From an uncultured Prevotellaceae bacterium (GTDB lineage: Bacteria; Bacteroidota; Bacteroidia; Bacteroidales; Bacteroidaceae): DNA of 64,000 nt. The stretch is taken from assembly GCA_947167515.1 (NCBI GenBank), contig CAMVIM010000006.1:78691-142690 (forward strand), read 5' to 3'. Shown here piece after piece: positions 7,867 through 62,587 of this stretch (its first letter is position 1; each line of letters begins with the position of its first letter). The notes below the pieces were generated by a model. It was not told where the DNA came from. It saw nothing but the letters and a program-made list of their open reading frames with translations, and searched no databases. The position numbers and the translations under genes were made by a program.

Positions 7867-8175
7867 GGTAGGTTGTTTGTAGTTGTTAACTGTCAACTCA
7901 AATAGTTCTTCCATTTTTTTATCTCGCGATTCTTGCATCCCGCATGGCAACTCCTAATTCCTAATTGGCTTCGCCGAAGATGCTCACGCTCGGCATAGTT
8001 CAAACAAGTTTGACCTCTGCACTCGCTCAACCGCATCTTTCCTAACTCCTGAGAACTAAACTGTCAATTGTCAACTGTCAATTAGCTAACTCCTAACTGC
8101 AAAGGTTAAAGTTAATAGGTTAATTGGTTAATTTCATTTGCTTCCCTTCGCTTTTTTTCATTTTTTCCTTCTCTC

Positions 8176-8208
8176 TTTCTTTCATTTAAAAATTATTGTG
8201 TACCTTTG
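8176..8208 (+). promoter_or_regulatory. Promoter of the structured RNA and helicase/methyltransferase operon
   Basis: TACCTTTG at 8201-8208 is a strong -7 box; the -33 partner (TTTC at 8176-8179, 21 bases away) is weaker. Transcription would start near 8211-8216, at the UGAGU that also begins the second RNA (57491-57765). Confidence 0.6.
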
Positions 8209-8210
8209 CG

Positions 8211-8433
8211 ATTGAGTTGCCTGCCTCTTGGCGAAGAGCGGCAGCCCCTTATTGGAAATAATAACAGCATTAGCTGATTATTCGGTACATCTTGAAACGT
8301 AGGAAATTTCAAAGATAATTCATACCTTGATAGTCACTAATGTCTGCACCGTTAGGTGTGGACATGACTTATCTTGTATGAATGGGCAATTCCTACGGCC
8401 TCAAGATGTGGATAAGACGGTTCACGCCTTTTT
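8211..8433 (+). ncRNA. Structured RNA, copy 1, upstream of the helicase/Eco57I methyltransferase operon
   Basis: Helices read from the sequence: CTGCC/GGCAG (8221-8244, with an inner TCTT/AAGA); AATAA+CAGC/GCTG+TTATT (8260-8282, loop ATTA) followed by CGG; an outer helix 8288-8295 with 8401-8408 and 8298-8305 with 8390-8397 (8+8 bp); 8318-8325 with 8376-8383 (8 bp); 8329-8336 with 8365-8373 (8 bp, bulged U); 8341-8350 with 8355-8364 (10 bp, tandem G-U pairs) closed by the loop GTTA. A weak hairpin (8408-8413 with 8420-8425) and five T (8429-8433) end it. The same helices form at 57503-57765 with different bases. I do not recognise a named RNA class. It may be a leader or a separate RNA. Confidence 0.8.
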
Positions 8434-8466
8434 CTATGTCTTGAAGCCATGCGGTTTTGCCTGTTA

Positions 8467-8508
8467 ATGCACCTGATAGGTCAGCAATGCCCAAAACCTA
8501 TCGTGCAT
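8467..8508 (+). promoter_or_regulatory. Hairpin that buries the helicase start codon
   Basis: ATGCAC (8467-8472) pairs with GTGCAT (8503-8508) and GATAGGT (8475-8481) with ACCTATC (8496-8502), giving 13 bp with a 2-base bulge. The first two bases of the ATG at 8507 are inside the stem, so translation would be hindered unless the hairpin opens. Confidence 0.7.
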
Positions 8509-11500
8509 GAATAATACACCAATCTCTTCCCATTTCTTCACTAACCGAGAAGGGAACACTTTAATGAGTGAATTTGAGGGCATTCTATCCAATAACCCCC
8601 AAGTGAAAAATCTTGATGCCGTCGTGGGCTTCCTACGTGCATCAGGCTATTTTACCTTGCGTCCTTTTCTTGACGGCATCAACAAGGTGCGTGTGCTCAT
8701 TGGCATCGATGTCGATAAGTACATTGCACGTGCTGCCCAACGTGGTGTGCTCTTTATGGGTGAAGAAGAGAAGGTGAAAGAGGACTGCATGCGCCAATTT
8801 CGGGAAGACATAGAGAGTTCAGATTACACCAAACAGGTGGAAGATGGCATGTTGCAGATGTTTCAGGATTTGTTGGATGGCAAACTGGAACTTCGTGCCC
8901 ATCCTTCCAAGAAGATACATGCCAAGTTCTACATTCTTTATCCAGACAATTTCAACCAGCATTCGTTTGGTGCAGCCATAACCGGTAGCAGCAACCTGAG
9001 CGGCAATGGATTGGGCATCACGAAAGAAAAGCAGTACGAGTTCAACGTGAAGCTCACTCGCTACGATGATGTGCAGTTTGCCAAAGAAGAGTTTGAACTG
9101 CTTTGGGAAGAAGCTAAGGATGTACCCATCACGGCAGTTGATTTCAAACAGGCAATGGATGACACCTACCTGAAAGGTGATGTGACTCCTTATGAACTAT
9201 ACATGAAGATGCTGATGGAGTTTTTCAGTGACCGAGTGCTGGCTATTGATATGGATGACCCCTTCGACATGCCAGAGGGTTATGACAAATATGAGTATCA
9301 GATGGATGCTGTGATAGAGGGCTATCAGAAACTGCTTCGCTATGATGGCTTCTTCTTGGCAGATGTGGTGGGTCTTGGAAAAACAGTGATTGCCACCATG
9401 ATAGCCAAAAAGTTTCTGATAGAGAATGGACGTGACAACACAAAGATTCTGGTGGTATATCCTCCTGCTGTCGAACAGAACTGGAAAGCCACGTTTAGGG
9501 ATTTCGGCATTGATAAATACACGCAGTTTGTTTCCAATGGCAGTTTGAGCAAGATTCTCGACACCAACAACTATGACTACTGGAATGCAGATGATTTCGA
9601 CCTTATACTGGTGGATGAAGCACACAAATTCCGCAACCACACCACTGGTGCTTTCAAAGACCTTCAGGAAATATGCAAGATGCCCCGTGTGGAAACTGGT
9701 TACATTCCTGGCTACAAGAAGAAGGTGATGCTGATTTCTGCCACACCTATGAACAACTCGCTGTCTGACATCTACTATCAGATTACAATGTTCCAAGACC
9801 CCCGTCAATGCACCATCGATGGCGTACCCAATCTGACCAGCTTTTTTGCGCCTCTCGAAGTGATGTTCAAGAAACTGCGGAAGGACAAGGAGTTCGATGT
9901 GGCAAAATTCAAGAAACTGTCAGAGAAGGTGCGTGAAACCATCATCAAGCCCATCACGGTTCGCCGTACACATTCCGACATTGAAAGTGTGGAACGATAC
10001 AGCAAAGATGTCAAGAGATTTCCCAAAGTGGCAGAACCTATCAAGAAGGAATATGAACTGAATGACCACATGGCGAGCCTTTTTGATGAAGCCATGCAAA
10101 CGCTTGACAAAAAACTGACTTATGCCCGCTATCAAGCCATTGCTTATCTGAAAGACGATGCTGCACCCGGTCTTTACGACAATGCCGAAACCATCAGCCG
10201 CAGTTTGGCTGGTATCCGAAAGAATGGCTTGGTGAAGCGGTTGGAGAGCAGTTTTCATGCCTTCAAGATTTCTGTGGATAATTTCCGCCAAGCCAACCAG
10301 AACATGCTTACGATGTGGGAGAATGACCGCATCTTCATTGCACCGGACATGGACATCAATCAATTGTATGCCCAAGGTTACACGGATGATGAAATAGAGG
10401 AAAAACTGAACGAGAAAGCGGAAGTCAACCCCAAGAATGCAGTCTTTTCTCGCAAGGATTTCAAACCTGAATACATCGACCTGCTCCGTCAAGACCAGCA
10501 ACTGCTCGATGAGATGTGGTTGGAATGGGAATATATTGATGATAAGGATGACTCAAAGTTTGCCAAGTTTGAAGACTTGCTGAAACACGAACTCTTCAAA
10601 AAAGAACAGAATCCCGAGGGAAAACTGGTCATCTTCTCTGAATCTGTGGACACGATAGAATATCTGGCGCGACGCATCAATCGCCCTGATGTGATGGTCA
10701 TTTCTGCCCGCAATCGCAATCAGGAATTCAAGACCATCCGTGAGAACTTCGATGCCAACTGGAAAACGAAGAAGGATGAATACAACATCATCCTGACTTC
10801 CGATGTGTTGGCTGAAGGCGTCAACTTGCACCGCTCCAACATCATCATCAATTATGACACCCCTTGGAACGCCACAAGGCTTATGCAGCGCATCGGTCGT
10901 GTGAACCGTATTGGTTCCAAATCAGACACCATCTATAATTACGTGTTCTATCCTTCCTCCAAAGGAAATGAGCAAATCAACCTGAAACAAATATCGCTCA
11001 GTAAGATTCAGACCTTCCACACCACATTCGGCGAGGACAATCAGATTTACTCCACAGAAGAAATCATTGACCGCGACCTCGACAAACTCTTCAAGCAGGG
11101 AATGAAGGAAGAAGAGGAAGACCGTAACTTGGAACTTCCTTTCTATGAGGAACTACGTGCCCTCTACCAGCAAAACCGCAAGGAGTACAAACGCATAGAG
11201 AAAATATCTCTGCGCAGTCGCACCGGCAGAGAGAAACGTGATGTGGAAGGTGTCACCCTTTCTGGCGATACGATGGTGTTCCTCAAAACCAACTTCCGCA
11301 AAATCTTCTATCTCGTGTCATACGAACAAGTGCGCGACCTTTCTGTGCTCGATGCCCTCAACTATTTCAAGGCATCACCTGAAGAAAAGGCTGTGCCTCG
11401 CATCGAACAACATCATGACCATGTGGAACGTGCCGTCAAGGAATTCCAGCAGAGCAAGGTGCGTGAGATTCAGGAGGAGGAAGCCTCACAACGGCAAAGG

Positions 11501-11824
11501 AATAATTTCGGAGCCCAAGTGACGACGGCTGTCAGCTTGCTCAATAAAATCATGCCATTCTTTGCAGAAGACCCTGACACGCAAGTGAAAGTAAACCAAC
11601 TGAAATCATTGGTGGAACGAGGCACTATCACAGACATCGCCAAACGCTTGCAACGAATTCAGAAAGACCTCCAGCGTCAAGGTGGCAAGGTGAAAATTAC
11701 CTTCGAAGAAGCGAAAGCGGAAATCCAAGCGATGGCGAACAAATACAACGCCTACTACCGAGACACTCAGCATGCAGAGGAAGAGTCGGATGCAAACATC
11801 ATCCTTTCAGAAAGTTTTCAATAA
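8507..11824 (+). CDS. SNF2/HepA-like helicase with N-terminal phospholipase D domain, 1105 aa
   Basis: The N-terminal PLD-type domain carries the catalytic signature H138-x-K140 (KIHAKFYI) with GSSN at 160-163, so it may be a nuclease of the PLD superfamily. It is followed by a superfamily 2 helicase core: VGLGKT (288-293, Walker A), DEAH (370-373), SATPMNNS (about 412), and motifs V-VI in LTSDVLAEGVNLHRSN and MQRIGRVNRIGSK. PLD-plus-SNF2 proteins are typical of restriction and other defence loci. The 22-base gap to the methyltransferase gene implies one operon. The start ATG 8507 lies in a hairpin; ATG 8564 is an alternative. I infer that this protein translocates on or cuts unmodified DNA. 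Confidence 0.93.
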   Translation: MNNTPISSHFFTNREGNTLMSEFEGILSNNPQVKNLDAVVGFLRASGYFTLRPFLDGINKVRVLIGIDVDKYIARAAQRGVLFMGEEEKVKEDCMRQFREDIESSDYTKQVEDGMLQMFQDLLDGKLELRAHPSKKIHAKFYILYPDNFNQHSFGAAITGSSNLSGNGLGITKEKQYEFNVKLTRYDDVQFAKEEFELLWEEAKDVPITAVDFKQAMDDTYLKGDVTPYELYMKMLMEFFSDRVLAIDMDDPFDMPEGYDKYEYQMDAVIEGYQKLLRYDGFFLADVVGLGKTVIATMIAKKFLIENGRDNTKILVVYPPAVEQNWKATFRDFGIDKYTQFVSNGSLSKILDTNNYDYWNADDFDLILVDEAHKFRNHTTGAFKDLQEICKMPRVETGYIPGYKKKVMLISATPMNNSLSDIYYQITMFQDPRQCTIDGVPNLTSFFAPLEVMFKKLRKDKEFDVAKFKKLSEKVRETIIKPITVRRTHSDIESVERYSKDVKRFPKVAEPIKKEYELNDHMASLFDEAMQTLDKKLTYARYQAIAYLKDDAAPGLYDNAETISRSLAGIRKNGLVKRLESSFHAFKISVDNFRQANQNMLTMWENDRIFIAPDMDINQLYAQGYTDDEIEEKLNEKAEVNPKNAVFSRKDFKPEYIDLLRQDQQLLDEMWLEWEYIDDKDDSKFAKFEDLLKHELFKKEQNPEGKLVIFSESVDTIEYLARRINRPDVMVISARNRNQEFKTIRENFDANWKTKKDEYNIILTSDVLAEGVNLHRSNIIINYDTPWNATRLMQRIGRVNRIGSKSDTIYNYVFYPSSKGNEQINLKQISLSKIQTFHTTFGEDNQIYSTEEIIDRDLDKLFKQGMKEEEEDRNLELPFYEELRALYQQNRKEYKRIEKISLRSRTGREKRDVEGVTLSGDTMVFLKTNFRKIFYLVSYEQVRDLSVLDALNYFKASPEEKAVPRIEQHHDHVERAVKEFQQSKVREIQEEEASQRQRNNFGAQVTTAVSLLNKIMPFFAEDPDTQVKVNQLKSLVERGTITDIAKRLQRIQKDLQRQGGKVKITFEEAKAEIQAMANKYNAYYRDTQHAEEESDANIILSESFQ

Positions 11825-11846: not shown

Positions 11847-14800
11847 ATGAACTACAAGGAAATCATCGAATCACGCTATAACCGCCAGAACTGGCAGACA
11901 CTCCTTCACGATATATTTGGAGGCAAGGTGAAGTTTTGGAGCGCTCCCTACGAAATCGACACCAACAGCAACCTATCAAAGCAAACCCTATGGTTGGGCA
12001 CTATTACATTGACAGATGGTGAAACCATTTCAATCTATGAAGTGGAATTGGCCGAAAGCGTTGACATAGAGCGCAATCGTCGAGGCATTCGCGACATGCT
12101 GCTGACCGATTGGAGAACCAGCGGCAGTGCAGGAGCTTTCATGTTCTGTTACCGCAAGAATGAGAGTGTGCTTCGTTTCTCGTATGTCAGCGAATCTTGG
12201 AACTTTGCAGAGGATGGTACATACAAGAAAGAATCAACCGACACCAAGCGTTTCACTTACCTCTTAGGTGAAGGGCATCGAAGTCGCACAGCCATTCAGC
12301 AATTCGAGAAACTGCGTGACAGCAGCCAGACATTGAAAGACCTCACAAAAGCCTTCTCGGTTGATGCTGTCAGCGATATGTTCTTCAAAGGCTACAAGCA
12401 GCAGTATGAGGACATTATCTTCTATGTGACTGGCAAACGGATGGTGAAGGTGGCAAACAAGTGGGAAGAACGACAAGAGGGCAAGCCTTGTGGTTCAATC
12501 TTGCAACAATTCTCCCATTTTGCTAACCCTGAAAAGGCTGTTCGTGATTACGTGAAGAAGTTGATGGGAAGACTGGTGTTCCTTCAGTTCTTGCAAAAGA
12601 AAGGTTGGTTGGGCGTACCAGCCAATGCTGCATGGGGCGATGGCGATACAGAATTCATTCAGAATCTGTTTGCACAATGCCAAGACAAAGACCACTTCGT
12701 AGATAACGTCCTCGAACCGCTCTTCTATGACCTGAACACCGAACGTGAAGGTGACTTCTCTAAACTCTTAACTCTCAAGTCCCAACAAATAAAGGTACCC
12801 TACTTGAACGGTGGACTTTTCGAGCGTGAGGCAACAGACGAGGCAAACTTCCCCTTGCCTGCTAAGTATATGAAGAGTCTGCTCGACTTCTTCACCTCCT
12901 ACAACTTCACCATCGACGAGAACGACCCTGACGATGCCGAAGTGGGCGTTGACCCAGAAATGTTGGGACGCATCTTCGAGAACCTGCTGGAAGACAACAA
13001 GGACAAAGGAGCATTCTATACACCCAAGGAAATTGTCAGTTACATGTGTCGTGAAAGCCTCATCGCCTATTTGCAGACAGGCATTGAGGACGAAGCCACC
13101 AAAGAAGCCATTCGTCAGTTTGTCACCACACACGACGTTGAGACTCTTGGCACGAATGACAAATTCCGCCAACAGGTGGACGAGGCACTGAAAAATGTCA
13201 AGATTTGTGACCCCGCCATTGGCTCTGGTGCCTTCCCTATGGGCTTGCTCAAAGAACTTTTCCTCTGCCGCACCGCCCTCGAAGGCATCAGTCAACACCA
13301 AGCCGCAGCCATCAAGAAGCACATCATCCAGCAGAACATCTATGGTGTTGACATTGAGCGTGGTGCTGTTGACATCGCCCGTCTTCGTTTCTGGCTTTCC
13401 CTGATTGTGGATGAAGAAACGCCACAAGCATTGCCCAACCTCGACTTCAAAATCATGCAGGGAAATTCGTTGTTGGAGCAATACAAAGGTGTTGACTTTT
13501 CAAAAATTACGGAGTTGAAATCAGAGAAGGAAGAAGGCGTACAACTCTCCTGGTTTGAAGAGGCGTTGGATGTTCTTCGCCTTGACTTACGCAAGAAGTT
13601 GGACGAATACTACAACTGCACCGACCATCACGAAAAACAAGCACTTCGCAAAGACATCATAAATAATGTGAAGCAGCAACTCCGCGAACAAAGCATCAAC
13701 ATCAACTTTGGTGACCTCGACCTCTCAGGTAACAACCAGTTCTTCCTCTGGCACACTTGGTTCTATGATGTGTTCTCACAAGGTGGTTTTGATATAGTGA
13801 TTGGGAATCCACCGTATGTTCGTAGAACATCATTGCCTGATGAAGACAAACATCGCTATGAGAAGATATATACAAGTGCAACAAAACAATATGACTTGTA
13901 TCTACTTTTTATTGAAAAGGGGCTTAAAACACTTGCCATTAATGGAAGTTTATGCTATATAAATCCCATTCGTTTCTTTAATTCCGATTATGGGCAAGGT
14001 TGTCGAAAATACATAGTTAAAAATCATAAACTTAAAGCAATTTTAGACGTATCGCAAATTCCGGTATTTCGGAATGCGATGACATATCCCTGTGTACTCA
14101 TGTTACAAGAAGGAAAAGATACAAACAACAATAATGACATATTGTATCGAAGACTTTTTGATTTAAAGAATCTACAAGTAATTGATAAGGTTACACCAAT
14201 TTTCACTAAGCAGAAAGAAATTGAAACAGATAGAGAGTTCAGGTTTATCGTTGATGTTAAACCAGAACTACGCTTATTAATAGAGAAGATTGATTCCAAA
14301 GGACACCCCATATCGTCCTTATTTGACATCGCGCGTGGCCTTGCAAATAGCAAGGTCGATTTTGAAGGGAGAATGTACCAAGCACTAAAATCGACAAATG
14401 TGAGAAGGTACTTCATTGAAGGTGAACCTAAAAGAATAAATACTGATTATGCTTATATTTTCAAATACCCAATGATAATCCTTCCACGGACAGTCGAATA
14501 TCTCCAAGCCATGATAAAGGAAGAGAACATTATCTGTCTTGATAGAATATACTATCTAACTCCTAAGGTTAAGATGAATTTACTATATGCTTTAGGTATC
14601 ATTAACTCATCTTTGACCAATTTTTGGTTTGAGTATTACTATAAAACGACAAAAGTATCAGGAAATTTTTTTGATTTGAATGGCAACCAAATTGGTTCGA
14701 TTCCAATACCTTTTGCTTCATCTTCTCAACAACAACCAATCATTAATTGGGTCAACCAGATTCTTTCTGCCAAGAAAGAAAATCCTTCAGCCGACACCTC

Positions 14801-14888
14801 CTCACTCGAATCCGAAATCGACTGTCTTGTCTATCAACTCTACGGCTTGACAGAAGAAGAAATCAAAATAGTAGATGGGGAATATTAA
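11847..14888 (+). CDS. Eco57I-type class II restriction-modification DNA methyltransferase, 1013 aa
   Basis: A gamma-type N6-adenine methyltransferase. The SAM-binding motif DPAIGSGAFPMG starts at residue 455 and is preceded by GAFYTPKEIVSYM; the catalytic NPPYVRRTS starts at residue 654. The N-terminal 380 residues are helical and contain no obvious PD-(D/E)xK site to my eye. The C-terminal half after NPPY should be the target-recognition domain. From about 13785 to 14730 the DNA is visibly more AT-rich than the flanking coding sequence, and normal composition returns for the last 50 codons. This suggests exchange of the specificity domain. Together with the upstream helicase it forms a two-gene restriction-like system. 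Confidence 0.94.
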   Translation: MNYKEIIESRYNRQNWQTLLHDIFGGKVKFWSAPYEIDTNSNLSKQTLWLGTITLTDGETISIYEVELAESVDIERNRRGIRDMLLTDWRTSGSAGAFMFCYRKNESVLRFSYVSESWNFAEDGTYKKESTDTKRFTYLLGEGHRSRTAIQQFEKLRDSSQTLKDLTKAFSVDAVSDMFFKGYKQQYEDIIFYVTGKRMVKVANKWEERQEGKPCGSILQQFSHFANPEKAVRDYVKKLMGRLVFLQFLQKKGWLGVPANAAWGDGDTEFIQNLFAQCQDKDHFVDNVLEPLFYDLNTEREGDFSKLLTLKSQQIKVPYLNGGLFEREATDEANFPLPAKYMKSLLDFFTSYNFTIDENDPDDAEVGVDPEMLGRIFENLLEDNKDKGAFYTPKEIVSYMCRESLIAYLQTGIEDEATKEAIRQFVTTHDVETLGTNDKFRQQVDEALKNVKICDPAIGSGAFPMGLLKELFLCRTALEGISQHQAAAIKKHIIQQNIYGVDIERGAVDIARLRFWLSLIVDEETPQALPNLDFKIMQGNSLLEQYKGVDFSKITELKSEKEEGVQLSWFEEALDVLRLDLRKKLDEYYNCTDHHEKQALRKDIINNVKQQLREQSININFGDLDLSGNNQFFLWHTWFYDVFSQGGFDIVIGNPPYVRRTSLPDEDKHRYEKIYTSATKQYDLYLLFIEKGLKTLAINGSLCYINPIRFFNSDYGQGCRKYIVKNHKLKAILDVSQIPVFRNAMTYPCVLMLQEGKDTNNNNDILYRRLFDLKNLQVIDKVTPIFTKQKEIETDREFRFIVDVKPELRLLIEKIDSKGHPISSLFDIARGLANSKVDFEGRMYQALKSTNVRRYFIEGEPKRINTDYAYIFKYPMIILPRTVEYLQAMIKEENIICLDRIYYLTPKVKMNLLYALGIINSSLTNFWFEYYYKTTKVSGNFFDLNGNQIGSIPIPFASSSQQQPIINWVNQILSAKKENPSADTSSLESEIDCLVYQLYGLTEEEIKIVDGEY

Positions 14889-57502: not shown

Positions 57503-57765
57503 GAGTACTGGCAAATCGTCATTCGTGACGCCTGCATCAAAGCAGGGTCGAGCCTCAGCGGAGGTGCTGGTACGGACATAATTTTTTATAACAAGCGTTT
57601 GCTGTTATTCGGAAAGTTTTACGAATCTACCACATTCAAAAAGACATCAATCCGAAAGAATAAGTCGCAAGCGTCTGTGCGTTAGCATGGGCGTGACTTA
57701 TCTGGATTGGTGGGCTTGTGGTAGAGCCTGTAAAGCTTAGATGAGAATACCGTCTATGCTTTTTT
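57503..57765 (+). ncRNA. Structured RNA, copy 2, upstream of the MmeI-like methyltransferase operon
   Basis: Helices read from the sequence: 57505-57513 with 57565-57573 (9 bp, tandem G-U) closing three hairpins: CGTCA/TGACG (TTCG loop, 57517-57530), CCTGC/GCAGG (57531-57546), CCTC/GAGG (57553-57564). Then ATAACA+GC/GC+TGTTAT (57588-57608) followed by TCGG; TCTACCACA (57626-57634) with TGTGGTAGA (57717-57725); 57646-57653 with 57704-57711; 57658-57666 with 57695-57702; CGTCTGTGC/GCATGGGCG (57672-57680, 57685-57693) with loop GTTA. A terminator hairpin (57732-57762) ends it. The same stems form at 8211-8433 with different bases. Confidence 0.82.
57732..57765 (+). terminator. Intrinsic terminator directly before the methyltransferase gene
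   Basis: AAAGC-TAGATG pairs with CGTCTA-GCTTT (11 bp, one T-T mismatch, loop AGAATAC), and six T follow (57760-57765). It would end the RNA unless read through or remodelled. Confidence 0.85.
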
Positions 57766-57825
57766 GTGCTCTATGCCAAGCCTACCCAGCCCGAAGATAA
57801 GCAATACGCACAACATGCTACGCCT

Positions 57826-60585
57826 ATGGCAAAGAAATTGCAACTGGGCTATAGGGAGATTGAGGAACGCTTGCAAGTGTTCCATTGCGGACGTGTACCT
57901 GCCAGCGAAGTGGGCGAACGGCTGTTATTCTCCTTTGGCAAGAGTGAACGTGACATTGCACGTTATCGTGAGGGCAAGGGCACACTCAAGACTTTTAGTG
58001 CCGGCTTGCTCATCAAGGGTTTGTTGTGTTATCAGGCAACTACAAGCCAACGACTTTCTGACACGTTGGAACGGCTGAAACGGGACGAACAGGTGAAGAA
58101 GGCGGCTCCCAAGATTGTGGCGGTGAGCGATGGGCAGACCTTGCTTGCCTACGATATGCGAGAAAAGGACACCTACGAGAATCGCCTTGACCGTCTCTAC
58201 TGCGACTTCGCGTTCTTCTATCCCCTGATGGATGTGGAGCGTGTACACTATGTGGAGGAGAATCCTGCCGATGTGAAGGCTGCGGAGAAATTAGCGAAAC
58301 TGCACGACGAACTACGTGCCTACAACGAGTTCCGTAGCGACAGCGACCTGCACGACCTCAATATCTTCATCACCCGACTGCTCTTCTGCTTCTTTGCCGA
58401 AGACACAGGCATCTTCGAGGAAAACCTTTTCACCTCCTCCATTCAGCGTTTCACCAAGGAAGATGGCAGCGACCTCTCACAATATCTGGACGAGACCTTC
58501 AACGTGATGGACTTGTCTGTGCGTCGCATGGACATCCCCAGCATCGTGAAGCAGTTCCCCTACGTGAATGGTGGTTTGTTCTCCAAGCGCATCCAGATTC
58601 CACGCATGGGGCAGAAGGCGCGGAAACTTATTCTTGAATGTGGTGGATTGGATTGGAAGGACATCAACCCCGACATTTTCGGCTCGATGATTCAAGCGGT
58701 GGTCAATCCCGAGGAACGTGCGAATCAGGGCATGCACTACACGAGTGTGCCCAACATCATGAAGGTGATTAACCCGCTGTTCTTGGATGAATTGCGTGGA
58801 GAGTACAACAAACTGAACGAGCAGTACGAACAGCGCAAACAGATGTGGGACGTTGGTGGCATATCAGAAAAGCAATTCACAGACGATTGTCGTGCCATAA
58901 ACAAGAAGTGCGATGCCCTTTTGTTGCGCATGAGTCGTATGAAGTTCTTCGACCCTGCGTGTGGTAGTGGCAACTTCCTCATCATCACCTACAAGAGCCT
59001 TCGCTTCCTTGAAATGGACATTCTCAGTCTTCAGCGCAAATGCCATCGAGGTGGTGATATCATGTTTGTGGATAACAGCGTCATTTCACTCAACCAGTTC
59101 TACGGCATCGAGTTATTAGACTTCCCTCACGAAGTCGCTATGCTTTCCCTTTGGTTGGCTGAGCATCAAATGAACACCAAACTCAACGAAAACTTTGGTG
59201 TGAATGTCAAAGCCCTTCCCCTTAAAAACATCACCCAAATCGTTTGTGGAAATGCGTGCCGATTGGATTGGAATGTGGTGTGTCCCCATACGAAGGAGGA
59301 AGAAGTGTTCGTGTTCGGAAATCCTCCATACTTGGGGAGCAAACTTCAATCATCAGAACAAAAGAAAGATATCGGTTATGTCTTTGGAGGTGTCAAGAAT
59401 TGCAAGATTCTTGATTATATTAGCAACTGGTTTATGGAAGGGGCAAAGTACATAAAAGGTAGTCGTGCTAAGTATGCTTTTGTAACAACCAATTCCATCT
59501 GTCAAGGAGAGCAAGTGGGCGTACTATGGCCTGAAATATATAAATTAGGTTTGCATATTTGTTTTGCCCATAAGTCTTTCCGCTGGTCAAATAACGCAAA
59601 ATATAATGCTGCTGTGACTTGTGCTATCGTTGGAGTATCAGATGTGAGCGACAAAAATAAGAAATTGCTCTATGATGAAAAACAATGTATGGAAGTAACC
59701 TTCATCAATCCTTATTTGATGAGTAACTCGGAAACGATTGTATTCAAGAAACCACAAGACCCACCAGGATTGCCAAAATTGTGTTTTGGTTGTATGCCCT
59801 ACGACGATAGGAATCATAAATACTTGAGATTAGAAGAATACGAAAAACAACAATTGCTTAATGAATACCCTCAAGCACAACCTTTGATAAGGAAAATATA
59901 TGGTTCTGAGGAATTTATTAATGGCAAGAATGTTTATTGCTTGTGGATTGATGACGAACAATTACCATTAGCAATAAGTATTCCTCCTATTAAAAAACGT
60001 ATAGAAGGTAATAAGAATTTCAGATTACATGAATCAGAAGACGGTCAGGCTTTGGCTGATAGACCACATCAGTTTAGAGAGCATCCTGAAGATAAGGAAA
60101 AAGTGCTGATTCCGCGTGTTTCTTCGGAGAATAGGACATATATTCCAATGGGGTATTTAGGGTTGAAGGATATTGTGTCAGACTCGGCTTTTGCATTATA
60201 TGATGCTCCCACTTGGCTCTTTGGCATTCTTACCAGCAAATTACATATGGTATGGGTGAAAACTGTTGGCGGTAAACTTGAAACCCGTTATCGTTATTCA
60301 GCCCAACTTTGCTACAACACCTTCCCCTTCCCCAAAATCTCTCCCGACAAGAAAGCCGAGATAACAGAAGCGGCAGAGAATGTGTTGGTGACTCGTGAGT
60401 TCTATCCCGACAAGACTTTGGTAGACCTCTACGACCCCGACAAGATGCCTCAGGACTTGCGAGAGGCGCATGCACGACTGGATGACATTGTGGAAAGTTG
60501 CTACCCCGGCTATCCCTTCGCCAACGACGAAGCAAGGCTGGAGTGCTTATTCAAGTTGTACGAGAAAATGACAAAGAAAGGATAA
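57826..60585 (+). CDS. MmeI-like class I SAM-dependent DNA methyltransferase, 919 aa
   Basis: Start ATG 57826 (MAKKLQLGYREIEERLQVF); an upstream GTG at 57766 touches the terminator and is rejected. The protein has an MmeI-type helical spacer (LHDLNIFITRLLFCFFAEDT), SAM motif FDPACGSGNFLII (D at residue 376), NPPY at residue 499, and an MmeI-type C-terminus (YNTFPFPKISPDKKAEI, ANDEARLECLFKLYEKM). No PD-(D/E)xK is seen by eye at the N-terminus. From NPPY (about 59310) to about 60300 the DNA is markedly AT-rich, then returns to normal, as in the first methyltransferase: probable target-recognition-domain exchange. Confidence 0.93.
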   Translation: MAKKLQLGYREIEERLQVFHCGRVPASEVGERLLFSFGKSERDIARYREGKGTLKTFSAGLLIKGLLCYQATTSQRLSDTLERLKRDEQVKKAAPKIVAVSDGQTLLAYDMREKDTYENRLDRLYCDFAFFYPLMDVERVHYVEENPADVKAAEKLAKLHDELRAYNEFRSDSDLHDLNIFITRLLFCFFAEDTGIFEENLFTSSIQRFTKEDGSDLSQYLDETFNVMDLSVRRMDIPSIVKQFPYVNGGLFSKRIQIPRMGQKARKLILECGGLDWKDINPDIFGSMIQAVVNPEERANQGMHYTSVPNIMKVINPLFLDELRGEYNKLNEQYEQRKQMWDVGGISEKQFTDDCRAINKKCDALLLRMSRMKFFDPACGSGNFLIITYKSLRFLEMDILSLQRKCHRGGDIMFVDNSVISLNQFYGIELLDFPHEVAMLSLWLAEHQMNTKLNENFGVNVKALPLKNITQIVCGNACRLDWNVVCPHTKEEEVFVFGNPPYLGSKLQSSEQKKDIGYVFGGVKNCKILDYISNWFMEGAKYIKGSRAKYAFVTTNSICQGEQVGVLWPEIYKLGLHICFAHKSFRWSNNAKYNAAVTCAIVGVSDVSDKNKKLLYDEKQCMEVTFINPYLMSNSETIVFKKPQDPPGLPKLCFGCMPYDDRNHKYLRLEEYEKQQLLNEYPQAQPLIRKIYGSEEFINGKNVYCLWIDDEQLPLAISIPPIKKRIEGNKNFRLHESEDGQALADRPHQFREHPEDKEKVLIPRVSSENRTYIPMGYLGLKDIVSDSAFALYDAPTWLFGILTSKLHMVWVKTVGGKLETRYRYSAQLCYNTFPFPKISPDKKAEITEAAENVLVTREFYPDKTLVDLYDPDKMPQDLREAHARLDDIVESCYPGYPFANDEARLECLFKLYEKMTKKG

Positions 60586-60589
60586 TACT

Positions 60590-62587
60590 ATGGAACAAGC
60601 AAGCAATAACATCGTAGATATTCGCTATGAGCAGACAGGACAATCGAGTGCGACCGATGCGCTGGGTATGCGTGAGATGCAAGCTAAAGCTTACGAAGCA
60701 AGGAACAAACGCTTCTTGCTGATTAAGGCGCCACCAGCATCGGGCAAGAGCCGTGCGCTGATGTTCATCGCCTTGGACAAACTGATGCACCAAGGACTGA
60801 AGAAGGTAGTGGTGGCGGTGCCCGAAAAGAGCATCGGACGTTCCTTCAAGAACACGAACCTGATGGAGCATGGTTTCTTTGCCGACTGGCGTGTGACCCC
60901 CTACTATGACCTTTGCGATGTGAAGAACGAGAAGGACAAGAAGGGGCGTTTTCTGGAGTTCTTCCAACAAGAAGCCTCGAAGGTGCTGGTGTGTGCCCAC
61001 GCCACCTTGCGCAACGGCATGAAGGAACTACCCGATGATGCCTTTGATGACACGTTGTTGGCCATCGACGAGTTCCACCACACGAGTGCTGATGCCTCGT
61101 CCAATCTGGGTGACGTGGTTCGTCGTGTGATGAACAACTCCACAGGACACATCGTGGCGATGACTGGCTCATACTTCCGAGGCGATGGCATCCCCGTACT
61201 TCGCCAAGAGGATGAAGCAAGGTTTTATCCTGTCACCTACAACTATTATCAGCAACTGAATGGCTACAAGTATCTGAAGAACTTGGTACTGGGTTATCAT
61301 TTCTATCGCGGCAACTATCTTGACCACATCGATGAGGTGCTGGACACAACGAAGAAGACCATCATCCACATTCCAAGTGTGAATGCCAGAGCCTCGACGG
61401 GCATCGGCAAATATGCCGAGACAGATGACATCATGCGTGCCATCGGCACCATCGAGAGGAAGGACTACAATACGTGCATCTATGAGGTGCGCACGAAGGA
61501 CGGGCGACTGCTGAAAGTGGCTGACTTGGTGGAAGATGATCCGAAGGAAAGGAACATGGTGCAGGGCTATCTGCAACGTATGAAACGAGCAGAAGACATG
61601 GACATCATCATCGCTTTGGGCACAGCAAAGGAAGGGTTTGACTGGCAATGGTGTGAGATGTGCCTGACGGTGGGTGTGAGAGGCTCGTTGACTGAAGTGA
61701 TTCAGATTATCGGGCGTTGCACACGCGACTGTGAGGGCAAAGAAACGGCAAGATTCGTGAACATGATAGCGATGCCCGAAGCGGAACAGGCTGATGTGAA
61801 GGTGGCTGTGAACGACTTTCTGAAAGCCATCACCGCCTCGTTGCTGATGGAGCAAGTGATGGCTCCAAGTTGGAAGTTCAAGACGGTAAAAGATGAGACA
61901 GAACCTTCACCACGCACCTTGGTTGTAGAGGGTTTGAAACCGCTGTCGAGTGAGAAGACCAAACTGATTGTGCAGGAACAACTGGACGACTTGAAGGCTT
62001 CCATCTTGCAGAATGAACAAGTGGCGAAAGCCATCAGCGGCTCGACCACAGCAGAAACCATCACGCAGAACTTGATACCCAAAGTAATTCGTGAACGCTA
62101 CCCCGACTTGACAGAGGATGAGGTGGAAGAAGTGCGCCAAAGGGTGTTGCTCGACACGATGATAAAGGGTAATGACATTGTGGATGAACACGGGAATCTG
62201 GTCGATATCAAAGATGACCAAGAGAGCGATGGCAATCGCATGATTAAGATTGCCAACCGCTTCATCAACATCGACAAACTGAGCATCAACCTGATTGACA
62301 CCATCAACCCGTTCCAAAGGGCATACGAGGTGATGTCGAAGTCGGTGGATGCACCTACGTTGAAGATTATTCAGGACACGATTGCAGAACAGAAGTTCAA
62401 CCTGACTCTGGAGCAAGCCATCACTATATTCAAAGGGCCGTTGCAGGTGTATGTGAAGGAGCATAACGGAAAAGTGCCCAGCGCAGAAGACCCTGACCCA
62501 AAGGTGAGAGAGATGGCTGCCGCCTTGCAGATGATGAAGAATCTGAAAGCGAGGAAGATGGCAGGATTGGAATATGAAGGAGCGTGA
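60590..62587 (+). CDS. DEAD/DEAH-type helicase, 665 aa
   Basis: A superfamily 2 helicase with Walker A KAPPASGKSRALMFI, DEFH box (LLAIDEFHHTSAD), motif III-like VAMTGSYFRGDG, and motif VI IIGRCTRDC. It follows the methyltransferase by 4 bases. It likely moves along DNA in the restriction system. Confidence 0.92.
   Translation: MEQASNNIVDIRYEQTGQSSATDALGMREMQAKAYEARNKRFLLIKAPPASGKSRALMFIALDKLMHQGLKKVVVAVPEKSIGRSFKNTNLMEHGFFADWRVTPYYDLCDVKNEKDKKGRFLEFFQQEASKVLVCAHATLRNGMKELPDDAFDDTLLAIDEFHHTSADASSNLGDVVRRVMNNSTGHIVAMTGSYFRGDGIPVLRQEDEARFYPVTYNYYQQLNGYKYLKNLVLGYHFYRGNYLDHIDEVLDTTKKTIIHIPSVNARASTGIGKYAETDDIMRAIGTIERKDYNTCIYEVRTKDGRLLKVADLVEDDPKERNMVQGYLQRMKRAEDMDIIIALGTAKEGFDWQWCEMCLTVGVRGSLTEVIQIIGRCTRDCEGKETARFVNMIAMPEAEQADVKVAVNDFLKAITASLLMEQVMAPSWKFKTVKDETEPSPRTLVVEGLKPLSSEKTKLIVQEQLDDLKASILQNEQVAKAISGSTTAETITQNLIPKVIRERYPDLTEDEVEEVRQRVLLDTMIKGNDIVDEHGNLVDIKDDQESDGNRMIKIANRFINIDKLSINLIDTINPFQRAYEVMSKSVDAPTLKIIQDTIAEQKFNLTLEQAITIFKGPLQVYVKEHNGKVPSAEDPDPKVREMAAALQMMKNLKARKMAGLEYEGA

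What the first reader, a model, noticed from the sequence alone, without database searches (positions are those of the whole stretch)
8211..8433. A structured RNA shared by two unrelated restriction-like operons (copy 1)
The leader of the helicase/Eco57I operon folds into a series of stems that also form, in the same order, upstream of the MmeI-like operon 49 kb away (57503-57765). Shared: UGAGU start just after a -7 box, an A-rich hairpin ending in UUAUUCGG, a long outer stem, two 8-bp inner helices with the strand GACUUAUC in common, and a GUUA-loop hairpin with GUCUG...UGG-C. Most paired bases differ but pairing is kept (for example CACC/GGTG versus TGC/GCA below the loop). Compensatory change of this type is strong evidence for a real RNA. 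I know no named class with this layout.
Basis: partly seen in the sequence, partly recalled or inferred. Interest (0 to 1): 0.93.

Follow-up and report, generated by a model that had tools for sequence, protein, structure and literature searches.

The report
RNA switch before restriction genes
A structured RNA that matches nothing in the Rfam library lies directly in front of the first gene of many DNA restriction-modification operons in rumen and other Bacteroidota; its paired strands change together across species and several of its strands can pair with one shared partner, so it is likely a switch that would set how much of these defence genes is made.

Summary
Both leaders belong to a large RNA family without an Rfam match. 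A covariance model finds it in 40 of 45 genomes of the genus and 230 of 349 of the family. In 100 aligned copies, 49 of 52 pairs change on both sides. Covariation in 137 copies shows a four-way junction whose two small hairpins carry complementary 8-nt loops (P2, probably a kissing helix).

Of 69 non-redundant copies, 44 precede a restriction-modification gene. Many weaker copies precede surface or other genes, and most methylase genes checked have no such leader, so neither is exclusive to the other. A promoter-like box lies upstream in 113 of 136 copies (control 4 of 132).

One strand (B) has three possible partners: A upstream, M (followed by a T-run) and C downstream. Folding keeps P2 in 44 of 44 verified restriction leaders alone, in 0 of 44 with their own next 75 nt, and in 33 of 44 with other leaders' 75 nt.

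Most likely a cis-acting attenuation switch; signal and direction are unknown. A folding test did not support translation control.

The parts
8201..8208 (+). promoter-like -7 box TACCTTTG, copy 1
   Evidence: read; the motif TAnnTTTG lies 20-200 nt upstream of the core in 113 of 136 copies, control windows 4 of 132
8213..8245 (+). 5' hairpin a, copy 1 (outer arms 8216-8221 and 8240-8245, inner hairpin 8225-8238 with GGCG loop)
   Evidence: by eye; an RGYG tetraloop closed by at least 4 bp lies upstream in 56 of 137 copies
8261..8285 (+). hairpin b and the strand UUAUUCGG, copy 1
   Evidence: 83% of cells paired in helix 1; 75.9% and 91.8%
8262..8433 (+). core RNA, copy 1 (model R1 match, 156.1 bits)
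8287..8294 (+). P1 5' strand (pairs with 8402-8409)
   Evidence: covariation z 5.7-15.7 over eight pairs
8294..8310 (+). hairpin 0: GAAA / UUUC with P2 5' strand 8298-8305 in its loop
   Evidence: pair -3:+11 z 5.2, A-T 97 and G-C 26 of 137
8318..8325 (+). P3 5' strand (pairs with 8376-8383)
   Evidence: helix 6: 97.4% of cells paired, six of six pairs covary
8329..8336 (+). P4 5' strand (pairs with 8365-8373, GACUUAUC)
   Evidence: helix 8: 89.5% of cells paired; A-C mismatches are as frequent as G-U here
8341..8364 (+). P5 hairpin with GUUA loop 8351-8354
   Evidence: helix 9; G-U 201 against A-C 3
8384..8401 (+). hairpin G: GGGC / GCCU with P2 3' strand 8390-8397 in its loop
   Evidence: third stem pair C-G 67 and U-A 61 of 135 copies; 130 paired, best of 2000 shuffles 109
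8402..8409 (+). P1 3' strand, which can also pair with strand C1
8410..8433 (+). strand M: GGATAAG...GGTTCACGCC (mimic of the P4 and P5 5' strands) followed by TTTTT
   Evidence: P5-3' x M -14.3 against P5 -14.7 kcal/mol on average; T-run in 59 of 69 copies, control 42 of 690 windows
8434..8482 (+). strand C of copy 1: C1 8434-8446, C2 TTTTGCCT 8455-8462, C3 GATAGGTC 8475-8482
   Evidence: own-partner test and fold flip
8507..11824 (+). PLD/SNF2-type helicase, first gene after copy 1
11847..14888 (+). Eco57I-type restriction-modification protein
57589..57765 (+). core RNA, copy 2 (R1 match, 127.4 bits); P1 57615-57622 with 57730-57737, P2 57626-57633 with 57718-57725, hairpin 0 stem 57623-57625 with 57635-57637, hairpin G stem 57712-57715 with 57726-57729, M 3' arm 57752-57759, T-run 57760-57765
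57503..57572 (+). 5' branched stem of copy 2, a different module from copy 1
57766..57801 (+). strand C of copy 2, ending CCGAAGATAAG
57826..60585 (+). MmeI-like restriction-modification protein, first gene after copy 2 (ATG 57826; the ORF list opens it at 57766)
60590..62587 (+). helicase, second gene after copy 2

Best explanation
The RNA is a conserved structured 5' leader, lying between a promoter-like box and the first gene in both operons of the window, that likely works as a cis-acting switch of transcription read-through for restriction-modification operons. Shown by sequence and covariation: P1, P2, P3 and P5; two small hairpins (0 and G) carrying the two strands of P2 in their loops, so that P1, P3 and these hairpins form a four-way junction; strand M, which imitates the P5 5' strand and is followed by a T-run; and, in the restriction leaders, strand C. 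Predicted by folding: while only the core exists, strand B pairs with A; once C exists, B pairs with C. Inferred: A:B (the folded junction, perhaps held by a ligand or protein) would keep B away from M, so that RNA polymerase reads on; when A:B is not held or is opened, B:M plus the T-run would act as a terminator and the operon stays low; after read-through, C would take B and make the choice final. The signal, and whether the folded state means on or off, are not known.
For: Covariation: 49 of 52 pairs changed on both sides, score 0.616 against 0.207 shuffled and at most 0.098 slid (this alignment was fitted to the model, so it leans towards it); ungapped covariation in 137 copies recovers P1, P2 and hairpin 0, and hairpin G has C-G 67 and U-A 61 of 135. 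Strand: G-U 305 against A-C 69 over P1-P5. P2 has no G-U at all in 798 cells, 775 of them Watson-Crick. Leader position: TAnnTTTG upstream in 113 of 136, control 4 of 132; 44 of 69 non-redundant copies have a restriction-modification gene on the same strand within 2.5 kb. Attenuator parts: T-run in 59 of 69 against 42 of 690 control windows, P5-3' x M nearly as stable as P5 itself; own M beats the mean of other copies' M in 61 of 69; helix III is followed by at least 5 T in 8 nt in 48 of 51 and 16 of 18 copies, and 95% / 86% of it forms when strand A is left out. Switch: P2 predicted in 44 of 44 verified restriction leaders as core, 0 of 44 with the own next 75 nt, 33 of 44 with 75 nt of other leaders; shuffled 75 nt leave P2 in 51 of 51 of a wider group.
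Against: No expression data. Helix III costs about 14 kcal/mol against the core's best fold, so the terminator would not form by default and something must open A:B. M and C were not shown to act. C pairings are clear only in part: own P1-3' x C1 better than others in 43 of 69, G x C2 in 47 of 69, UUAUUCGG x C3 in 46 of 69, and S x C3 in 34 of 69, which is not significant. In the EcoRI-methylase class the C pairing runs in another register or is weak. P1 itself is predicted in the core in only 33 of 44 verified restriction leaders. Not every restriction gene has the leader: about 3 of 11 N6-methylase genes of this genome, and 5 (two more weakly) of 20 EcoRI-type methylase genes in 41 relatives. 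The R1 scan also finds copies before genes with no tie to restriction. The folding program cannot model the kissing helix.
Confidence: 0.55

Rival explanations
1. A leader that controls translation: C and the hairpin before the start codon would hide or free the ribosome site.
For: Several leaders have an inverted repeat right at the start codon, such as ATACGC...GCGTATG, and C3 lies next to it.
Against: In 26 leaders the mean unpaired probability of -18..+2 around the start is 0.45 in the free fold and 0.44 with A:B enforced (5 more open, 6 less open, p 0.98).
Confidence: 0.17
2. A small RNA released from the leader (ending at the T-run) that acts in trans, with the operon as neighbour.
For: Own promoter-like box and T-run give a possible unit of about 220-260 nt.
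Against: The restriction leaders carry conserved partner strands beyond the T-run and the core usually lies about 40-90 nt from the start codon.
Confidence: 0.12
3. A protein-binding scaffold or stability element of the mRNA, without a switch.
For: Highly structured domain before many unrelated genes; conserved tetraloops in the 5' hairpin.
Against: Does not explain why the own downstream strand undoes the core in 44 of 44 verified leaders while other leaders' strands leave it in 33 of 44.
Confidence: 0.11
4. A DNA element: a small mobile element or recombination site with inverted repeats.
For: Many copies per genome, up to 13; hits of distant genomes often lie near contig ends.
Against: Strand-specific G-U pairs (305 against 69 A-C over P1-P5, though P4 alone is 46 against 51), fixed place between promoter-like box and start codon, no phage or plasmid match.
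Confidence: 0.03

Closest known systems
Riboswitches (metabolite-sensing leaders)
   Same: A folded junction with long-range loop contacts, followed by strands that compete with its closing stem, in front of a gene.
   Different: No ligand is known; the genes under it (restriction enzymes, surface proteins) point to no common pathway; no Rfam class matches.
Terminator/antiterminator attenuators (trp, pyr, T-box; recalled)
   Same: One strand shared by two exclusive hairpins, one of them followed by a T-run.
   Different: No conserved leader peptide was seen by eye and no tRNA-binding motif was identified; strand C adds a third exclusive partner after the T-run.
Bacteroidales-1, Bacteroides-1, Flavo-1 and other Bacteroidetes motifs of Weinberg 2010 (PMC2864571)
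   Same: Structured RNAs of Bacteroidetes found by comparison; listed in that paper's Table 1 (passages seen).
   Different: Those with Rfam numbers are in the library that gave no match; 'restriction' occurs 0 times in that text.
Known control of restriction-modification systems (C proteins, antisense RNA, proteolysis; recalled)
   Same: The purpose would be the same: to set restriction activity.
   Different: Here one RNA module is shared by type I, MmeI-like, Eco57I-like, EcoRI-like and D12 systems.

Membership tests
Any Rfam 15 family | score above the family's gathering threshold | tested here: not met
   0 matches in the whole window; 0 matches up to E 5 in 8150-8560; in 6 other loci the one match up to E 0.5 lies outside the RNA
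Riboswitch | conserved folded domain upstream of genes | tested here: met
Riboswitch | alternative pairing of the closing stem with a downstream strand | tested here: met
   by folding and partner tests only; 25 copies without a verified restriction gene lose P2 in 12 of 25
Riboswitch | binds a specific small molecule | not testable with these tools
   needs in-line probing or binding assays
Riboswitch | genes share a metabolic theme | tested here: not met
   restriction genes, LRR surface proteins, PAP2, acyltransferases, lipoproteins
Transcription attenuator | hairpin followed by a T-run, with an exclusive antiterminator | tested here: met
Transcription attenuator | shortened transcript made in a regulated way | not testable with these tools
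   no RNA data available here
Leader-peptide attenuator | conserved short open frame over the 5' strand | tested here: not met
   the ATG at the P5 5' strand of copy 1 is replaced by ACG or CGC in other copies, by eye
T-box | specifier loop and tRNA-binding antiterminator bulge | not tested
   only the Rfam scan, which holds T-box (recalled) and did not match

The most novel reading that the evidence does not exclude
A new class of signal-sensing RNA switch in Bacteroidota: a four-way junction closed by a kissing loop, used as a plug-in leader by restriction-modification systems of unrelated types and by surface genes, so that one cellular signal sets restriction and surface make-up together through a three-partner strand exchange.
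Probability: 0.33. Interest if true: 0.92.

Novelty: new variant of a known kind. Interest (0 to 1): 0.8.

Why it matters
How restriction is kept in check, and when it is raised, is known for few systems and mostly through proteins. A shared RNA leader in front of type I, MmeI-like, Eco57I-like, EcoRI-like and D12 systems would mean that many Bacteroidota set restriction through one RNA module, which travels with the operons (for example MmeI-like operons in Prevotellaceae and in Parabacteroides distasonis). It gives a named place, strands and mutations for testing such control, and it bears on why DNA transfer into these bacteria is hard. The family itself, up to 13 copies per genome and with very strong covariation, is a target for ligand searches and structure work.

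Tried and rejected
Restriction-specific RNA: rejected. Of 60 family-level and own loci, taken mostly from the top of the score list and not at random, I count 40 with a restriction-modification gene: 29 of 34 at 100 bits or more and 11 of 26 below (a few by eye, such as the C5-methylase-like L134). Of 53 first genes after pattern-found copies, 46 look like restriction-modification by N-terminal sequence; 12 of these 46 belong to a 330-aa family whose tested member has no Pfam match (L085) and whose next gene in L092 has Eco57I and ResIII domains. These records partly repeat genomes already sampled. In 36 first genes from order and phylum, methylase domains are a minority.

Translation control: tested, not supported. 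Leader peptide: not kept. Local hairpin in M alone as terminator: weak, -5.4 kcal/mol on average, weaker than P5-3' x M in 67 of 68. UUAUUCGG x C3 and S x C3: weak or not significant over all copies. The 'RM' group of 47 or 51 was assigned by default and holds genus loci that I had not checked (for example L031, followed by an acyltransferase); I therefore repeated the fold test on 44 leaders with a verified gene.

Phage, plasmid or viral carriage: blastn of copy 1 against 72,556 plasmid and 50,697 phage records, no match; exact pattern in viral contigs, 0. These are weak tests for a diverged RNA. An E. coli negative control for R2 was meant but did not run, the genome not being held. The broad scans give a rough guide instead: 315 of 345 phylum genomes have no R1 match at E <= 1e-4.

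Print: eight text searches gave listings with no paper on such a leader. Passages seen: PMC8040213, PMC11109978, PMC8632094 (70, no occurrence of the terms), PMC2864571, PMC7366714. None of these passages describes an RNA before restriction genes. Supplements could not be read, and a 2017 motif paper (DOI recalled) is not held.

Full report
What was checked. The window's two leaders were read and folded: both are much more stable than shuffles (z -5.89, -5.45). Rfam has no match to them, by gathering score over the whole window or permissively in 8150-8560.

Other copies. Copy 1 as DNA finds two more places in the genome: one before a 113-aa remnant of an MmeI-like gene (L004) and one before hsdM, hsdS, hsdR (L005). 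BLAST finds matches in 25 of 45 genus genomes. From 24 aligned copies I built model R1; 27 of its 52 pairs have changes on both sides. R1 finds 40 of 45 genus genomes and 230 of 349 family genomes at E <= 0.001, and 90 of 295 order and 30 of 345 phylum genomes at E <= 1e-4 (both samples include the window's own genome). A broader model R2 from 100 copies gives 18 places in the own genome at E <= 0.05: five above 100 bits and 13 between 34 and 63 bits. A 23-base pattern from hairpin b finds 64 stretches in named genomes, mostly rumen Prevotellaceae and Bacteroidaceae, with two Parabacteroides records; 59 of the 64 score above 100 bits with R1.

Structure. On 100 copies 90.0% of cells pair, against 67.8% when shuffled and at most 45.9% when slid, and 49 of 52 pairs change on both sides. 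Because that alignment was fitted to the model, I also measured covariation without gaps around P2 in the 137 copies left from 186 rows after dropping those with a broken P2, short flanks or over 90% similarity. The strongest pairs are P1 (eight) and P2 (eight). Two further short helices appear: hairpin 0, GAAA/UUUC around the P2 5' strand (A-T 97, G-C 26 of 137 at its varying pair), and hairpin G, GGGC/GCCU around the P2 3' strand (C-G 67, U-A 61; 130 of 135 paired, best of 2000 shuffles 109). P1, hairpin 0, P3 and hairpin G therefore meet in a four-way junction, and P2 joins the loops of the two opposite small hairpins. P2 holds 775 Watson-Crick cells of 798 and no G-U, which fits a loop-loop helix. 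Over P1-P5, G-U outnumbers A-C 305 to 69, so the plus strand as RNA is under selection; P4 alone does not show this (46 to 51).

Place. TAnnTTTG, the Bacteroidota -7 motif (recalled), lies 20-200 nt upstream of the core in 113 of 136 copies and in 4 of 132 control windows. The core is followed by the first gene, usually 40-90 nt on. With a conservative test (tblastn of 17 reference restriction-modification proteins, same strand, within 2.5 kb), 44 of 69 non-redundant copies qualify. For scale, this genome has 11 N6-methylase genes in 3.68 Mb, so a random position would qualify for that one family in well under 1% of cases (my arithmetic). Families include MmeI-like, PLD/SNF2 helicase with Eco57I, HsdM, EcoRI-type methylase with a GmrSD/HNH partner, D12 pairs and others.

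Limits of the link. About 3 of 11 N6-methylase genes of this genome have the leader, and 5 clearly plus 2 weakly of 20 EcoRI-type methylase genes in 41 relatives (only 1.5 kb of flank was searched, and copy 1's own leader lies beyond it). Weaker copies precede LRR (BspA-type) proteins, PAP2 enzymes, an SPFH protein, acyltransferases, lipoproteins and unknowns. The restriction leaders look like one branch of a wider family.

Rival pairings. Strand B (P5-3', ACUUAUC, P3-3', GGGC, P2-3', GCCU, P1-3') pairs with A in the core. Strand M repeats the order of the P4 and P5 5' strands (GAUAAG...GUCCACGC) and is followed by a T-run in 59 of 69 copies (control 42 of 690). M fits its own P5-3' better than the mean of other copies in 61 of 69, and about as stably as P5 (-14.3 against -14.7 kcal/mol). 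Helix III (P5-3' with M) costs about 14 kcal/mol in the whole core but forms readily if A is left out (95% and 86%). This is the layout of a terminator with an antiterminator, with read-through as the default unless A:B is opened.

The downstream strand C. In copy 1 and its relatives C pairs with P1-3', GGGC and ACUUAUC. Own-partner tests support the first two in 43 and 47 of 69 copies and do not support the third over all copies. Folding gives the clearest result: in 44 leaders with a verified restriction gene, P2 is predicted in 44 as core, in 0 with their own next 75 nt and in 33 with 75 nt of other leaders of the group; in the other 25 copies the numbers are 25, 13 and 25. Shuffled 75 nt leave P2 in 51 of 51 of the wider group. 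So the restriction leaders have kept a downstream strand matched to their own core.

Function. I take the element for an attenuation switch in cis. The start codon region is no more open in one state than in the other (0.45 and 0.44 in 26 leaders), which speaks against a simple translational switch. What holds or opens A:B is unknown. S-adenosylmethionine is a tempting guess for methylase genes, but the surface genes under weaker copies do not fit it; I have no evidence for any ligand.

Novelty. No Rfam match and nothing in eight text searches of an open library (listed in Tried and rejected); many subscription papers and all supplements were out of reach, so an unlisted earlier sighting is possible. 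The kind, a structured leader with competing folds, is known; its use as a shared leader of unrelated restriction systems is, as far as I could search, not described.

Noticed in passing
L004:5697-7255: Copy 3 leads a 113-aa remnant of an MmeI-like gene, followed by an acyltransferase gene and then an intact-looking helicase with a T5orf172-like end: a broken restriction operon that kept its leader.
   Followed up: partly
L212:3219-4467: A strong copy (151.6 bits) stands directly before an acyltransferase gene with no restriction gene between; L123 and L135 (by eye) look alike. O-antigen type acyltransferases could alter phage receptors.
   Followed up: partly
L007 and L008, 5' parts: Two nearly identical cores (97% to copy 1) carry different 5' hairpin modules, as if the front of the leader had been exchanged.
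   Followed up: no
window:8225-8238 and upstream parts of other copies: The 5' hairpin often has an AGCG, GGCG or AGTG tetraloop on a changing stem (RGYG closed by at least 4 bp in 56 of 137 copies, AGCG in 29): a possible contact site.
   Followed up: partly
L087:3574-5965 (also L179): A strong copy (138.9 bits) precedes a 454-aa protein without a Pfam match and a second gene; possibly an unrecognised defence pair.
   Followed up: no
window:56671-57362: A HEPN-domain gene and a small partner lie just upstream of copy 2, a likely toxin-antitoxin pair.
   Followed up: no
window:6910-7628: A RelB-like antitoxin gene with a following 137-aa ORF lies upstream of copy 1.
   Followed up: no
L310, L314-L317 (own genome): Weak copies with a longer P5 region precede secreted proteins; L083/L314's protein is related by BLAST to the LRR protein of L091.
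   Followed up: partly
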